DNA of 5,294 bases from an uncultured Oscillospiraceae bacterium (lineage in GTDB: Bacteria > Bacillota_A > Clostridia > Oscillospirales > Oscillospiraceae): assembly GCA_944387745.1 (NCBI GenBank), contig CALXGD010000141.1:1-5294 (forward strand), in the 5' to 3' direction. Under the pieces are notes generated by a model that searched no databases, had not been told where the DNA came from, and saw only the letters and a list, made by a program, of their open reading frames with translations. Positions 83 through 3,786 of this stretch are shown here, in pieces (within the stretch, counting starts at the first letter, position 1; each line of letters begins with the position of its first letter). A program made the position numbers and the translations under genes.

Positions 83-931
83 ATGTCTGGAACCCTATAT
101 CTGGTCCCCACCCCCATCGGCAACCTGGGGGACATTTCTCAGCGGATGGCCGATACTTTGGCCCAGGCGGGCTTCATCGCCGCCGAGGACACCCGAGTAT
201 CGGTGAAGCTGCTCAACCACCTGGGGCTGAAAAAGCCCATGGTGTCCTACTACCGCCACAACACCCAGACCAGCGGCCCGGCCATTTTGGAGCGGCTGCT
301 GGCGGGGGAGAGCTGCGCCCTGGTCACCGACGCCGGCACCCCGGCCGTCTCCGACCCGGGGGAGGAACTGGTCTCTCTGTGCGCCCAGGCGGGCGTTCCA
401 GTGGTGTCCATTCCAGGCCCCTGTGCCCTGGTCACCGCCCTGGCCGCCTCTGGCCAGCCCACCGGCCGGTTCACCTTTGAGGGGTTTCTGGCCATGAACA
501 AAAAGAACCGCCGCCGGCACCTGGAGTCCCTGCGGAATGAGGAGCGGACCATGATCTTCTACGAGGCCCCCCACAAGCTGCCCGCCACCTTAAAGGACCT
601 GGCGGAGACCTTTGGGCCGGACCGGCCCGTCTCCCTGTGCCGGGAGCTGACCAAGCTCCACGAGGAGATTGTCCGCACCACCCTGGGGGAGGCGGCGGCC
701 CGGTATGAACAGGAGGCGCCCAAGGGGGAGTTTGTGCTGGTGGTCCGGGGGGCGGAACCTTTGGCGGAGGGGCCGACCACATTGGAGGACGGCCTGGACC
801 GGGTGCGGGAACTCCGGGAGGCGGAAGCTCTCTCCCTGCGGGATGGGGTGAAGCGCGCCGCCAAGGAACTGGGCCTGTCCCGGAACGAGCTGTATGCCCG
901 CGCCCTGGCGGAGCAGACAGAAAACCGTTGA
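83..931 (+). CDS. rsmI: 16S rRNA (cytidine(1402)-2'-O)-methyltransferase RsmI
   Basis: This 282-residue cytoplasmic SAM-dependent methyltransferase adds the 2'-O-methyl group to C1402 of 16S rRNA in the decoding centre; RsmH adds the N4-methyl group there. It has the tetrapyrrole-methylase-like fold. The family signatures appear in order: LYLVPTPIGNLGDIS (residues 5-19), AEDTR (34-38), LVTDAGTPAVSDPG (80-93), the SIPGPCALVTAL loop (109-120) and FYEAPHK (159-165). A C-terminal helical segment (LSLRDGVKRAAKELGLSRNELY, about 250-271) is typical of the family. Length is normal (B. subtilis YraL is about 290 residues). The start at 83 is chosen because GGGAGG (71-76) lies at a good distance and the protein then begins at the conserved N terminus; a TTG at 14 in the same frame would add 23 unconserved residues encoded across the palindrome. 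The stop codon overlaps the -35 box of the next transcription unit. No promoter for rsmI is visible in positions 1-82. Confidence 0.96.
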   Translation: MSGTLYLVPTPIGNLGDISQRMADTLAQAGFIAAEDTRVSVKLLNHLGLKKPMVSYYRHNTQTSGPAILERLLAGESCALVTDAGTPAVSDPGEELVSLCAQAGVPVVSIPGPCALVTALAASGQPTGRFTFEGFLAMNKKNRRRHLESLRNEERTMIFYEAPHKLPATLKDLAETFGPDRPVSLCRELTKLHEEIVRTTLGEAAARYEQEAPKGEFVLVVRGAEPLAEGPTTLEDGLDRVRELREAEALSLRDGVKRAAKELGLSRNELYARALAEQTENR

Positions 932-956
932 CACGGCCCCGCAGGTGTGGTATAGT
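928..956 (+). promoter_or_regulatory. Strong sigma-A promoter for the ABC-F leader
   Basis: A perfect -35 box TTGACA (928-933) is followed by a 17-bp spacer and a -10 box TATAGT (951-956). The -10 box is preceded by TGG (948-950), giving an extended -10 element. The -35 box shares bases with the rsmI stop codon TGA (929-931). Transcription would start near 962-964 and produce a leader of about 330 nt before the ABC-F start at 1295. This is the best promoter match in the window. The start site is predicted from spacing only. Confidence 0.85.
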
Positions 957-1004
957 CAGTTCGATTTCGTCCCAATTCTTTTGTGTGTCCCCACACCCTG
1001 CGGG
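938..1004. repeat. Long-arm inverted repeat spanning the promoter -10 and start site
   Basis: The left arm CCCGCAGGTGTGG (938-950) is complementary to the right arm CCACACCCTGCGGG (991-1004) over 13 pairs with one bulged C, across a 40-base loop. The left arm lies inside the promoter spacer and is therefore absent from RNA started at that promoter. It would be present only in RNA reading through from rsmI. In promoter-started RNA the right arm can instead form a local hairpin, CCCAC-A-CCC with GGG-A-GTGGG (990-1010). No T run follows, so a simple terminator role is unlikely. A protein-binding or readthrough-silencing role is possible but unproven. Confidence 0.55.
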
Positions 1005-1069
1005 AGTGGGAGCAGCAAGAAAATTGTTGAGCTTGGGAATGGATTGAACTAGAGATAGGAGGCGGGAGC

Positions 1070-1090
1070 ATGCGCAATTCCCTTTGCTGA
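1070..1090 (+). CDS. Six-codon leader peptide uORF (MRNSLC)
   Basis: A perfect AGGAGG (1057-1062) lies 7 nt before an ATG that opens the tiny frame Met-Arg-Asn-Ser-Leu-Cys followed by TGA. It is by far the best ribosome-binding site in the leader, which argues that the peptide is translated. The ATG can be hidden in a stem with CGCATG at 1091-1096, and the codons Ser-Leu can pair with AGAGGG at 1151-1156, so a ribosome paused here would alter downstream folding. By analogy with other ABC-F and erm leaders, it may be a drug-sensing stalling peptide. The peptide does not match a leader I know. Confidence 0.65.
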   Translation: MRNSLC

Positions 1091-1114
1091 CGCATGACGG
1101 GAACATTTTGTGGG

Positions 1115-1134
1115 GGCCGGGGACGGCTCCGGTC
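1115..1134 (+). other. GC-rich leader hairpin
   Basis: GGCCGGGG (1115-1122) can pair with CTCCGGTC (1127-1134) over eight pairs, two of them G-U, with an ACGG loop. The following TTGTCA is too poor in T for a convincing terminator. It more likely acts as a spacer or pause hairpin between the uORF and the first stem copy. The pairing is seen directly; the role is inference. Confidence 0.45.
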
Positions 1135-1145
1135 TTGTCATGCCG

Positions 1146-1168
1146 CCGCGAGAGGGGATTGCCTGTTC
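1146..1168 (+). promoter_or_regulatory. Candidate antiterminator arm: upstream copy of the terminator stem sequence
   Basis: This segment resembles the terminator region at 1231-1255: both carry CCGCGAG, then GGGGA, then CCTGTTC. Its first nine bases, CCGCGAGAG (1146-1154), can pair without interruption with TTCTTGCGG (1253-1261), the 3' arm of the terminator, using G-U pairs. That would break the terminator. It can instead fold locally, CCG-c-GAG with CTTCGG (1146-1152 and 1171-1176) plus AGG/CCT inside, which would leave the terminator free. These are mutually exclusive folds, as expected of an attenuator switch. No folding energies were computed. Confidence 0.5.
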
Positions 1169-1230
1169 CGCTTCGGCTGAATGTGAGATGGGTGAGGGCC
1201 GCTTTCTGCGCCCGGACCCTGGCCGGTGCG

Positions 1231-1273
1231 CCGCGAGGACGGGGAGACCCTGTTCTTGCGGCCTTTCATTTTT
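1231..1273 (+). terminator. Intrinsic terminator/attenuator before the ABC-F gene
   Basis: CCGCGAGGACGGGG (1231-1244) pairs with CCCTGTTCTTGCGG (1248-1261) in a 14-pair uninterrupted stem, including four G-U pairs, around an AGA loop. It is followed by the T-rich stretch TTTCATTTTT (1264-1273). It ends only six bases before the ribosome-binding site of the downstream gene and lies well after the rsmI stop, on the far side of a strong promoter. It would therefore terminate leader RNA rather than rsmI RNA. This position is typical of an attenuator controlling readthrough into the gene. Confidence 0.8.
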
Positions 1274-1279
1274 GCCGGC

Positions 1280-1287
1280 AAGGAGGG
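1280..1287 (+). promoter_or_regulatory. Ribosome-binding site that sets the ABC-F start
   Basis: AAGGAGGG lies 7 nt before ATG 1295 but only 1 nt before the in-frame ATG at 1289. It therefore supports 1295 as the true start and makes 1289 unlikely. A GTG further upstream at 1226 would place coding sequence across the terminator and is also disfavoured. Confidence 0.85.
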
Positions 1288-1294
1288 CATGACC

Positions 1295-2806
1295 ATGTCA
1301 CAGATTTTATTGCAACAGGTTTCTTTTACCTATGACGGGGACCACACCCCGGTATTTCAGGCTCTGGATCTCCAGCTGGATACCAGCTGGAAGCTGGGGC
1401 TGGTGGGGCGCAACGGGCGGGGAAAGACCACCCTGCTGCGCCTGTTGGAGGGGTCGCTGACCGGCAGCGGGACTCTCCTGTGCCCGGAGCTGGCCATCTA
1501 CTTCCCGCGGCCTCTGGCCGGGGAGGGACGCGCCGTCCGGGAGGTTCTGTTGGAGGGCGTCCCGCCGGAGGAGGAGTGGAAGCTCCTGCGGGAACTGAAC
1601 AAGCTGGAGCTGGGGGAGGAGGTGCTGGAGCGGCCCTTCCAAAGCCTCAGCGGCGGGGAGCAGACCCGGGCCCGGCTGGCCGCGCTGTTCTACGCGGAGG
1701 GATGCTATCCCCTCATCGACGAGCCCACCAACCACCTGGACGAGGCGGGCCGGGCCCTGATAACCCGGTATCTCCGAGGCGTGCGCCGGGGTTTCCTGCT
1801 CGTCTCCCACGACCGGGCGGTGCTGGACGGGTGCGTGGACCACATTCTGGCTCTGAATCCGTCGGGACAGGAGCTGATGCGGGGGACCTTCTCCACTTGG
1901 TATGAGGAGAAGTGCGCCCGGGACCGGCGGGAGGAGGCCCGCAACGCGGCCCTGCGGGGGGAGATCCAGCGCCTGGAGCAGGCGGCCCGGCGCACAGAGG
2001 GCTGGTCCGACCAGGTGGAGCGGAGCAAGTACCGGGGCGAAAATTCCGGCCTAAAGGTGGACCGGGGCTATGTGGGCCACAAGGCGGCCAAACTGATGAA
2101 GCGCTCCAAGGCCATCGCCGCCCGGCAGGCGGAGGCGGCGGAGGAGAAGCGGAGCCTACTCCGGGATGTGGAGCACGCCGACCCGCTGAAGCTCTTTCCT
2201 CAGTCCTACCGGGGCGGCCGGCTGCTGGAGCTGCGGGAGGCGGCGGTGTGTTATGGAGAGCGGCCGGTCTGCGCCCCCTGCTCCTTCTCCCTGGAGTCGG
2301 GGGACCGGGTGGCCCTGACGGGGGGCAACGGGAGCGGAAAGACCAGCCTGCTCCGGCTGATCCTGGGGGAGGCGGTGTCCTACACCGGGACCCTGCGCCG
2401 AGCCTCCGGACTGGTGATCTCCTATGTGCCCCAGCACGCCGGCGGCCTGTCCGGGACGCCCGCCGAATTTGCCCGCCAGCAGGGGCTGGACCGGACCCAG
2501 TTTTTCACCGTGCTGCGGAAGCTGGACTTCTCCCGCCCCATGCTGGAGCGGGATATGGCGGAGTACAGCGCGGGACAGAAGAAAAAGGTGCTGCTGGCCG
2601 CCAGCCTGTGCCAGCGGGCCCACCTGTATCTGTGGGACGAGCCCCTCAATTACATCGACCTGTTTTCCCGGATGCAGATCGAGGAGCTGATTTTGACCTA
2701 CCGGCCCACCCTGCTCTTTGTGGAGCACGACCGGGCCTTCCGGGAGCGCGTTTCCACCCGGACGGTGGAGCTGCGCCCTCCCGCCCCCTGGAGAGAGGGG
2801 CAGTGA
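1295..2806 (+). CDS. ABC-F ribosomal protection ATPase, Lsa/CplR type
   Basis: This 503-residue soluble protein has two ATP-binding domains and no membrane segments. Domain 1 has Walker A GRNGRGKTT (38-46), signature LSGGEQ (118-123), Walker B LIDEPTNHLD (140-149) and H-loop SHD (H172). A charged helical linker (about 200-290, containing DRGYVGHKAAKLMKRSK) is the antibiotic-resistance region. Domain 2 has Walker A GGNGSGKT (343-350), Q380, signature YSAGQKKK (424-431), Walker B LYLWDEPLNYIDL (444-456) and the H-loop FVEHD (H478). The DEPLNYID and FVEHD forms and the length (Lsa(A) is 498 residues) point to the Lsa/CplR branch. Those proteins enter the ribosomal E site and displace lincosamides, pleuromutilins and streptogramin A. 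Both catalytic glutamates (E143, E449) are present, so it should be active. It has its own promoter and an attenuator leader, suggesting drug induction. The exact drug spectrum cannot be read from sequence. Base use matches the neighbours, so there is no sign of recent transfer. Confidence 0.92.
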   Translation: MSQILLQQVSFTYDGDHTPVFQALDLQLDTSWKLGLVGRNGRGKTTLLRLLEGSLTGSGTLLCPELAIYFPRPLAGEGRAVREVLLEGVPPEEEWKLLRELNKLELGEEVLERPFQSLSGGEQTRARLAALFYAEGCYPLIDEPTNHLDEAGRALITRYLRGVRRGFLLVSHDRAVLDGCVDHILALNPSGQELMRGTFSTWYEEKCARDRREEARNAALRGEIQRLEQAARRTEGWSDQVERSKYRGENSGLKVDRGYVGHKAAKLMKRSKAIAARQAEAAEEKRSLLRDVEHADPLKLFPQSYRGGRLLELREAAVCYGERPVCAPCSFSLESGDRVALTGGNGSGKTSLLRLILGEAVSYTGTLRRASGLVISYVPQHAGGLSGTPAEFARQQGLDRTQFFTVLRKLDFSRPMLERDMAEYSAGQKKKVLLAASLCQRAHLYLWDEPLNYIDLFSRMQIEELILTYRPTLLFVEHDRAFRERVSTRTVELRPPAPWREGQ

Positions 2807-2933: not shown

Positions 2934-3786
2934 ATGACATATCTGATGGTCGCGGTCCTGGGCGTGGTCCAGGGAGTGGCGGAATTTTTGCCCCTTTCCA
3001 GTTCCGGGCATCTGACCCTGACTCAGCATTTCTTTAACATGGAGACACCGGACAACCTCTTCAACATCCTGCTTCACTTTGCCACCTTGATTGCGGTGTG
3101 CGTCTACTACTGGCAGGATATCTGGGAGATGATCCTGGAGTTCTTCCGCTTCTTTGGGGACCTCTTCTCCCACACCCCCAGCCGGGGGGAGCCCCCCCGC
3201 CGCCCGCCGGCAGATTCTACTGCTGATCGTGGCCACTCTGCCCCTGTTTCTGGTGCTGCCCATCAAGGACTATGTGGAGCAGGTGGGCAATTACCCGGCG
3301 GCGGTGAGCTGCATTTTGCTTCTCACCGGCGTGGTCCTGTTCCTGTCCGACCGCATGGCCAGGGGCCGGAAAAACGCCCGGAACACGACCTTGAAGGACG
3401 CCCTGCTCATCGGCGTGGCCCAGGGCTTTGCCACCCTGCCCGGCCTGTCCCGCTCCGGCAGCACCATCGCCGCCGGCATGGCTCTGGGGCTGGACCGGAA
3501 ATTTGCGGTGCGCTTCTCCTTCCTCATGTCCCTGCCCGCCGTGTTTGGCGCTACCTTGTTGGAGGTAGTGGATGTGGCGAAGGAGGGGAATTTCGACGCC
3601 GCCCTGCTGCCCAAGTACCTGCTGGGGATGGCCATCGCCGGGGTGGTGGGCTATTTCTCCATCGGCCTTGTGAATCTGCTGGCCTCTAAGGGCAGGTTCG
3701 GGGCCTTTGCCTACTACTGCTGGGTAGCCGGCGGAGTGTTCCTGGTGCTCAGTCTCACAGGCTTCACACTGGTGCCGGCGGCATAG
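2934..3786 (+). pseudogene. uppP: Undecaprenyl-diphosphate phosphatase UppP, broken by a one-base frameshift
   Basis: UppP (BacA) is a multi-pass membrane enzyme that removes a phosphate from undecaprenyl diphosphate, recycling the lipid carrier for peptidoglycan; excess enzyme gives bacitracin resistance. The start ATG follows GGAGG (2924-2928) by 5 nt. The first 88 or so codons carry motif 1, QGVAEFLPLSSSGHL (residues 13-27, with the catalytic E17 and H26). The frame then leaves the family sequence at a G6-A-G-C7 tract (3184-3198). Family sequence resumes one frame over, with motif 2 PGLSRSGST (169-177 of the corrected protein, R173), and runs through hydrophobic helices to the stop at 3784-3786. 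Removing one C (or one G) restores a 283-residue protein, close to the usual 270-280. Read as given, translation runs in the wrong frame to 3689 and makes about 251 residues, with only the first third native. Both halves look well preserved, so a sequencing error or a very recent or slippery change is more likely than an old pseudogene. Confidence 0.88.

What the first reader, a model, noticed from the sequence alone, without database searches (positions are those of the whole stretch)
928..1294. Apparent drug-sensing attenuator leader for the Lsa/CplR-type ABC-F gene, with leader peptide MRNSLC
Seen directly: an extended -10 promoter, AGGAGG 7 nt before a six-codon ORF, and a 14-pair hairpin with a T-rich tail ending six bases before the gene's ribosome site. 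Established: ABC-F resistance genes such as vmlR and msrD are induced by drug-stalled ribosomes on short uORFs that prevent leader termination. Inference: drug stalling on this uORF allows readthrough into the ABC-F gene. I do not recognise the peptide or the leader.
Basis: partly seen in the sequence, partly recalled or inferred. Interest (0 to 1): 0.75.

Follow-up and report, generated by a model that had tools for sequence, protein, structure and literature searches.

The report
Drug-sensing RNA switch before resistance gene
A gut bacterium appears to keep a ribosome-protecting antibiotic resistance gene off with a self-folding messenger RNA that is predicted to switch on when a drug freezes a ribosome at the start of a tiny upstream gene; the principle is known, but this version, which also seems to precede a resistance gene that spreads on plasmids, was not found described.

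Summary
Observation confirmed: extended -10 promoter (928-956), AGGAGG plus six-codon uORF MRNSLC (1070-1090), 15-pair terminator (1230-1262) with T-rich tail, then the ribosome site of an ABC-F gene (1295-2806) nearest Lsa, not CplR. It is not chance: in a family-wide sample 14 of 16 assessable homologous ABC-F genes have the uORF, 13 also an assigned terminator. Comparison supplied the switch: uORF codons pair with a downstream segment A (anti-antiterminator), while A can instead pair with the terminator's 3' arm C. Both helices show compensatory changes. Mimicking a ribosome stalled on the uORF AUG shifts 41 of 50 leaders, 5 nt before the terminator is complete, from terminator pairing to pairing of C with the middle region, against 18 of 300 shuffled controls. 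Weak points: the window's own leader switches only at 7 nt, completed terminators mostly win back (16 of 50 switch), and why the A-C hairpin should not itself terminate is unsolved. uORF peptides vary (2-8 residues) while RNA pairing persists, so start-codon stalling rather than the peptide is probably sensed. Plasmid lsa(E) has the same layout. This is vmlR/cplR-type attenuation: a new member of a known kind. No drug response was tested.

The parts
928..956 (+). Promoter: -35 TTGACA 928-933, 17-nt spacer, TG, -10 TATAGT 951-956
   Evidence: 11 of 12 consensus matches; by the listing, 52 of 58 leaders have a permissive TTG...TA...T site 53-66 nt before the uORF start (window 142, L061 125, L027 80, three none)
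958..1050 (.). Imperfect palindromic repeat element between the -10 and the uORF
   Evidence: inverted repeat 958-975/1033-1050; RNA fold of 957-1056 -36.9 kcal/mol, z -4.37; related copies in unnamed relatives
1057..1062 (+). Shine-Dalgarno AGGAGG of the uORF; in the repressed fold GGAGGCG pairs with segment D
   Evidence: pairs 1059-1065 with 1168-1174; helix 1, 96.9% of cells paired, no two-sided changes
1070..1090 (+). uORF MRNSLC*; codons 2-6 contain segment U (1074-1087)
   Evidence: GGAGG.GGGA..ATGCGCAA invariant over 20 leaders
1092..1143 (+). P1, apical hairpin of SL-1, starting just after the uORF stop codon
   Evidence: 11 pairs, 5 with changes on both sides
1146..1162 (+). Segment A: pairs with U (1148-1162 with 1074-1087) in the repressed fold, or with C (1146-1157 with 1250-1261) as proposed antiterminator
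1164..1174 (+). Segment D, pairs with the uORF start and Shine-Dalgarno region at the base of SL-1
1230..1244 (+). Segment B, 5' arm of the terminator
1248..1262 (+). Segment C, 3' arm of the terminator and alternative partner of A
1263..1273 (+). T-rich tail, predicted termination zone
1281..1286 (+). Shine-Dalgarno AGGAGG of the ABC-F gene, outside the terminator
1295..2806 (+). ABC-F gene, 503 aa, closest to the Lsa family (ARE3)
   Evidence: ABCF_Lsa_all 604.8 bits (cut-off 750), NF000355 416.3 bits (cut-off 380); Lsa(A) 7nhk 418.5 bits over residues 1-494

Best explanation
A ribosome-mediated transcription attenuator. Without drug, ribosomes clear the tiny uORF, its codons (U) pair with A in a long hairpin SL-1 (anti-antiterminator), B pairs with C, and transcription stops near 1263-1273. 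When a drug blocks the first peptide bonds (predicted: lincosamides, streptogramin A, pleuromutilins, the spectrum of known Lsa proteins), a ribosome halts with AUG 1070 in its P site and covers about -15 to +16. U cannot close on A; A is free and engages the first-transcribed part of C before B does, so a terminator does not form in time and RNA polymerase reads through into the ABC-F gene. Shown: the sequence parts, their conservation, compensatory changes in U-A, P1, B-C and (more weakly) A-C. Computed only: the switch on a mimicked start-codon stall. Inferred: transcription from near 963, drugs as trigger, that A-C is not itself a working terminator (it has a loop of about 90 nt), that readthrough raises ABC-F, and that the peptide matters little.
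For: Homologues: 14 of 16 with the uORF (one is the sample's centre genome, without it 13 of 15). Pattern SD+ATGCGCAA: 15 places in 300 genomes, 0 for the reversed pattern; 13 lie before ABC-F genes, the other 2 are start codons of ordinary genes. On 20 leaders SL-1 plus terminator pair in 95.8% of 920 cells, 14 of 46 pairs changed on both sides, 0/500 shuffles on each of five measures; A-C 87.0% of 238 cells, 6 of 12 pairs changed on both sides, 0 to 14 of 500 shuffles. The best partner of U and the best partner of C overlap by 8 nt or more in 44 of 50 leaders; A-C beats mononucleotide-shuffled A by more than 2 sd in 40 of 50. Start-codon stall: A-C wins in 39 of 50, B-C in 6; free 1 and 45; control block between A and B 5 and 42. 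Switch 41 of 50 against 18 of 300 with shuffled middle. Leaders of lsa(E), a Paenibacillus lsa-type gene and a Subdoligranulum plasmid gene go from B-C to middle-C when stalled, full length. Precedents: vmlR, cplR.
Against: The window's own leader does not switch at 5, 4 or 0 nt before completion, only at 7 (7.2 vs 0.4 expected pairs). With the terminator complete only 16 of 50 leaders (5 of 24 clusters) switch; at 5 nt 9 of 50 do not, and 16 of 24 clusters do. In 34 of 50, the window included, the A-C duplex covers all or all but 1 nt of the terminator's 3' arm, so A-C is not set off from the T run; my first idea that it is, failed, and only its long loop speaks for antitermination. A-C beats a dinucleotide-shuffled middle at 5/100 or fewer in only 25 of 50 (window 11/100), U-A in 38 (U there includes part of P1). 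A-C changes may partly follow from A resembling B. RNAalifold of the blocked alignment chose B-C. In the window the ABC-F SD is predicted less open when stalled (0.04) than free (0.69). The structure counted comes from the same alignment. Pausing, pseudoknots and protein factors were not modelled; no RNA or drug data.
Confidence: 0.75

Rival explanations
1. Nascent-peptide sensor: the drug arrests the ribosome because of the uORF peptide (as for macrolide leaders), so MRNSLC itself is read.
For: 36 of 50 peptides have Arg at position 2 and many end in Cys. In vmlR, changing the uORF to MRK lowered induction by lincomycin (PMC9226507 passage), and PMC10201436 stresses that uORF identity matters (passage).
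Against: 30 different peptides of 2 to 8 residues among 50 leaders; leaders with MRK*, MRN* or MI* keep the U sequence beyond the stop (by eye); 551 of 825 uORF nucleotides from codon 2 to stop pair with the downstream segment in the predicted fold (no control made). A ribosome modelled at the stop codon gives A-C in 19 of 50 and B-C in 28, against 39 and 6 at the start codon.
Confidence: 0.13
2. Mainly translational attenuation: the ABC-F ribosome site is hidden until drug stalls the uORF ribosome.
For: cplR and vmlR combine both layers (PMC10201436, PMC9226507).
Against: The SD lies outside the terminator (1281-1286); modelled SD openness is alike free, stalled and at the stop codon (means 0.22, 0.20, 0.25 over 50 leaders), and in the window falls from 0.69 to 0.04 on stalling.
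Confidence: 0.07
3. Plain partial terminator that lowers a constitutive gene; uORF and alternative pairing incidental.
For: The terminator is strong and conserved; once complete, 34 of 50 leaders do not switch in the model.
Against: Conserved uORF ribosome site and start, compensatory changes in U-A and A-C, and the shuffled control.
Confidence: 0.05
4. Amino-acid attenuator or T-box type sensor of charged tRNA.
For: Arg codon 2 is common and a Cys codon frequent.
Against: No run of one codon; codons vary between leaders; no Rfam match at gathering level in the window and nothing relevant at E up to 10 in 900-1310.
Confidence: 0.02

Closest known systems
vmlR leader of Bacillus subtilis (uORF MIN; PMC9226507, passages read)
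   Same: uORF lies in an anti-antiterminator SL-1; stalling on the uORF frees an antiterminator; intrinsic terminator; PLSA-type ABC-F
   Different: There an SD-sequestering hairpin adds translational control; no such layer was found here; the gene is ARE2, here Lsa-like; the leader sequences were not aligned here
cplR leader of Clostridioides difficile (uORF MR[I/M]; PMC10201436, section 20 and passages read)
   Same: Clostridial ABC-F, tiny uORF starting Met-Arg, 5' hairpin holding the uORF, terminator and antiterminator
   Different: cplR terminator hides the gene's SD, here the SD is outside; gene family differs (CplR 129.8 bits, Lsa 604.8); the uORF here is six codons
lsaA leader of Enterococcus (uORF MAGN predicted by uORF4u; PMC10201436 passage)
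   Same: Lsa-family gene with a predicted tiny uORF
   Different: Only the peptide is given in the text read; that leader was not fetched; the peptide differs
lsa(E) leader on Enterococcus faecium plasmid (L127, CP006623.1)
   Same: Same U-A-B-C layout; model R1 matches it at 618-752; B-C free, middle-C stalled; gene 48.3% identical
   Different: uORF MYNFSC*, AT-rich, terminator about 160 nt before the gene; the searches named in the report listed no description of this leader

Membership tests
uORF-dependent transcription attenuators of ARE ABC-F genes (vmlR/cplR kind) | Downstream antibiotic-resistance-type ABC-F gene | tested here: met
   NF000355 416.3 bits, above cut-off 380; Lsa(A). Resistance itself not tested
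uORF-dependent transcription attenuators of ARE ABC-F genes (vmlR/cplR kind) | Short uORF with ribosome site between promoter and terminator, conserved in homologues | tested here: met
   14 of 16
uORF-dependent transcription attenuators of ARE ABC-F genes (vmlR/cplR kind) | Intrinsic terminator before the gene | tested here: met
   detected within 60 nt of the gene in 44 of 58 leaders
uORF-dependent transcription attenuators of ARE ABC-F genes (vmlR/cplR kind) | Mutually exclusive anti-antiterminator / antiterminator / terminator | tested here: inconclusive
   Met for the group by covariation and folding; for the window's own leader only at 7 nt before completion, and A-C is not set off from the T run
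uORF-dependent transcription attenuators of ARE ABC-F genes (vmlR/cplR kind) | Drug-dependent readthrough requiring uORF translation | not testable with these tools
   needs RNA and reporter experiments
uORF-dependent transcription attenuators of ARE ABC-F genes (vmlR/cplR kind) | Second, translational layer: gene SD sequestered (described for cplR and vmlR; not taken as required) | tested here: not met
Lsa (ARE3) ABC-F proteins | NCBIfam ABCF_Lsa_all at its cut-off of 750 bits | tested here: not met
   604.8 bits: best family by far but below the curated cut-off, so Lsa-like
CplR ABC-F proteins | NCBIfam ABCF_CplR at its cut-off of 780 bits | tested here: not met
   129.8 bits
Any Rfam family | Covariance-model match | tested here: not met
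   among 14 of the fetched loci only two T-boxes, not the leader

The most novel reading that the evidence does not exclude
One leader RNA class is the ancestral control unit of much of the Lsa family, from gut Oscillospirales to plasmid-borne lsa(E), and its uORF is selected as RNA rather than as peptide: the element reports any ribosome frozen at a start codon, whatever the drug or cause, through a race between A-C and B-C.
Probability: 0.45. Interest if true: 0.58.

Novelty: new member of a known kind. Interest (0 to 1): 0.45.

Why it matters
It adds a leader class with compensatory base changes, not matched by the Rfam copy searched, for an ABC-F group found in many gut Clostridia, and ties it to mobile lsa(E), suggesting that inducible control travels with the gene. 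Because uORF length and peptide vary while the RNA pairing stays, the set is a natural experiment on whether tiny ABC-F uORFs sense drugs by peptide or merely by start-codon arrest, a relation that PMC10201436 says warrants investigation.

Tried and rejected
Rfam: nothing for the leader. The leader before other genes: matches not at ABC-F genes proved to be start codons of ordinary genes or coding sequence (L068, L073; L099-L103), so no other regulon showed in the genomes sampled. The window lies in no held whole genome, so copies in its own genome could not be sought. RNAalifold of the 20-leader alignment with the uORF blocked did not propose A-C, full length or truncated. D-B pairing as antiterminator was considered by eye and rejected, since it would give termination on drug; not computed. 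Translational control of the ABC-F SD: no consistent signal. An inverted repeat seen by eye at 940-952/990-1003 was not listed; no claim is made. Model R1 matched only 20 of 38 distant leaders at E up to 1. Literature: MRNSLC 0 papers; the listings showed no description of this leader, but only passages of a few papers were read, supplements (such as the uORF table of PMC10201436) could not be, and the library is open-access only.

Full report
What is there. TTGACA-17-TATAGT with TG lies at 928-956. AGGAGG 1057-1062 stands 7 nt before ATG 1070; the frame ATGCGCAATTCCCTTTGCTGA gives MRNSLC* (1070-1090). A 15-pair stem 1230-1262 with a T-rich tail to 1273 precedes AGGAGG 1281-1286 and the ABC-F start at 1295. 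The ABC-F protein (503 aa) scores 604.8 bits with NCBIfam ABCF_Lsa_all (cut-off 750), 416.3 with the general ribosome-protection model NF000355 (cut-off 380) and 129.8 with CplR; among solved structures Lsa(A) is far the best (418.5 bits, residues 1-494). Neighbours are RsmI (83-931), an UppP/BacA-type gene and an FtsK-type gene. The nearest ABC-F relatives are in Oscillospiraceae and unnamed gut bacteria.

Homologues. A scan of genome contigs returned 49 loci; the three weakest, partial ones (L047-L049) were left out. A pattern search in 300 genomes and an ABC-F search in 61 added more. Together with the window this gave 77 upstream regions, 71 after removing repeats. In 58 a uORF was assigned by hand, from a mechanical candidate list or by eye (L031, L083, L084); 13 had none assigned (L023, L028, L034, L036, L040-L045, L076, L079, L089). 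A terminator within 60 nt of the gene was detected automatically in 44 of 58, three of which (L018, L031, L059) I later judged unclear. Fifty leaders went on: 41 of those 44, four set by hand (L005, L011, L017, L062) and five with a terminator 72-173 nt before the gene (L024, L026, L032, L033, L038). Dropped: L018, L021, L025, L027, L031, L059, L061, L072. The least biased figure is: 17 ABC-F genes in 61 genomes; L076 has too little upstream DNA; of 16, 14 have the uORF and 13 also an assigned terminator (not L078), two have neither (L079, L089). One of the 14 is the centre genome of the sample, known beforehand.

Specificity. The pattern hit 15 places in 300 genomes, none when reversed; 13 precede ABC-F genes (two repeat leaders already in hand, L003 and L025) and two are start codons of ordinary genes. 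Model R1, from 17 leaders, matched 20 of the 38 more distant leaders at the right place and strand at E up to 1, and missed 18 (the reverse strand of many places also scores, and a few weak matches lie elsewhere). In 295 genomes it matched 14: nine at ABC-F genes, including the eight best, and five at 26.2 to 23.2 bits at ordinary gene starts or in coding sequence.

The switch. The consensus fold of 20 close leaders is one long hairpin SL-1: uORF ribosome site with D, uORF codons U with A, P1 at the apex; then the terminator B-C. Of 920 cells 95.8% pair, 14 of 46 pairs have changes on both sides (2 of 7 in U-A, 5 of 11 in P1, 4 of 12 in B-C), and no shuffle of 500 reaches any of five measures; the structure was derived from the same alignment. 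The A-C helix pairs in 87.0% of 238 cells, 6 of 12 pairs changed on both sides; 0 to 14 of 500 shuffles reach the measures and all slid versions are lower. Two of its pairs at one end fail in about half the leaders. Over 50 leaders the best partner of U and of C overlap by 8 nt or more in 44. Against a dinucleotide-shuffled middle, U-A is at 5/100 or fewer in 38 of 50 and A-C in 25 (window 0 and 11 of 100). A-C beats mononucleotide-shuffled A by more than 2 sd in 40 of 50; the median leader's A pairs with its own C better than with all but 12% of the other leaders' C, and with its own U better than all but 8%.

Modelling. Each leader was folded as an ensemble, free or with -15 to +16 of the uORF barred from pairing (a ribosome halted at AUG). 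Five nucleotides before the terminator is complete, free leaders form B-C in 45 of 50 and A-C in 1; stalled ones A-C in 39 and B-C in 6; a block of up to 31 nt between A and B gives 5 and 42; a ribosome at the stop codon 19 and 28. Counting any partner of C in the middle region, 41 of 50 switch, against 18 of 300 with the middle shuffled. Grouped at 72% identity, 16 of 24 clusters switch. With the terminator complete only 16 of 50 (5 of 24 clusters) do, and the window's leader switches 7 nt short (7.2 against 0.4 expected pairs) but not at 5, 4 or 0. RNAalifold of the blocked alignment kept B-C. In 34 of 50 leaders the A-C duplex takes in the terminator's 3' arm to its end or all but 1 nt, so why A-C would not terminate is open; its loop of about 90 nt in the window is the only argument. 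The picture, if right, is a race during transcription.

Why the peptide probably matters little. Among the 50 leaders there are 30 peptides of 2 to 8 residues: MRKTTC (12), MRK (7), MRNSLC, MRNSHR, MRN, MRR, MI, MINFSCK, MRHFSCK and others; of 825 uORF nucleotides after the start codon, 551 pair with the downstream segment in the predicted fold (no control). Three-codon uORFs keep the U sequence beyond the stop (by eye). PLSA drugs act right after initiation with little context dependence (PMC10201436 passage). Against this, in vmlR an MRK uORF induced less well (PMC9226507 passage).

Translational layer. Modelled openness of the ABC-F SD is alike in all states on average; in the window it drops on stalling (0.69 to 0.04), which does not help the model.

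Mobile relatives. Of 140 plasmid records with a match to the ABC-F, 114 are Enterococcus. Plasmid lsa(E) (48.3% identical) has uORF MYNFSC, U TAACTTTTCTTGC, A GCAAGAAAGTTA and terminator arms of the same motif, about 160 nt before the gene; R1 matches it at 618-752, 19.0 bits, E 1.3e-4 in 10,452 bases. At full length lsa(E), a Paenibacillus lsa-type gene and a Subdoligranulum plasmid gene fold to B-C free and middle-C stalled; cut 5 nt short, the last two already favour middle-C without a ribosome, and R1 did not match the Paenibacillus leader.

What is known. vmlR (PMC9226507, passages) and cplR (PMC10201436, section 20 and passages) work in this way, with uORFs MIN and MR[I/M]; uORF4u gave MAGN for lsaA. 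[quoted passage not shown] The lsa(F) paper (PMC13339394, term search of the main text) has no occurrence of uORF, leader, attenuat- or terminator. The listings showed no description of the present leader; they cover open-access text only. Hence: a new member of a known kind, with a good comparative case.

Repeat element. The window has 142 nt from the -35 to the uORF where 52 of 58 leaders have 53-66 (L061 125, L027 80). It looks like a small dispersed palindromic repeat; its effect is unknown.

Noticed in passing
window 958-1050: About 93-nt imperfect palindromic repeat between -10 and uORF, with diverged copies in two unnamed relatives and a short match in a third; REP/MITE-like by appearance, name recalled, not tested.
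   Followed up: partly
window 910-931 and 1009-1030: 22-nt direct repeat, 82% identical, spaced 99 nt; the first copy overlaps the -35, the second lies in the repeat element.
   Followed up: no
window about 2934-3786: The UppP/BacA-type gene is spread over two reading frames that change near a G+C-rich stretch around 3180-3210; assembly error or true break not decided, left as it is.
   Followed up: no
L127:630-845: Plasmid lsa(E) of Enterococcus faecium has an attenuator-like leader of the same layout, uORF MYNFSC*.
   Followed up: partly
L035:4494-4695 and L001:6315-6557: T-box leaders near ABC-F loci; in L035 it begins at the end of the ABC-F match.
   Followed up: no
L079, L089: Members of the ABC-F group without the uORF leader.
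   Followed up: no
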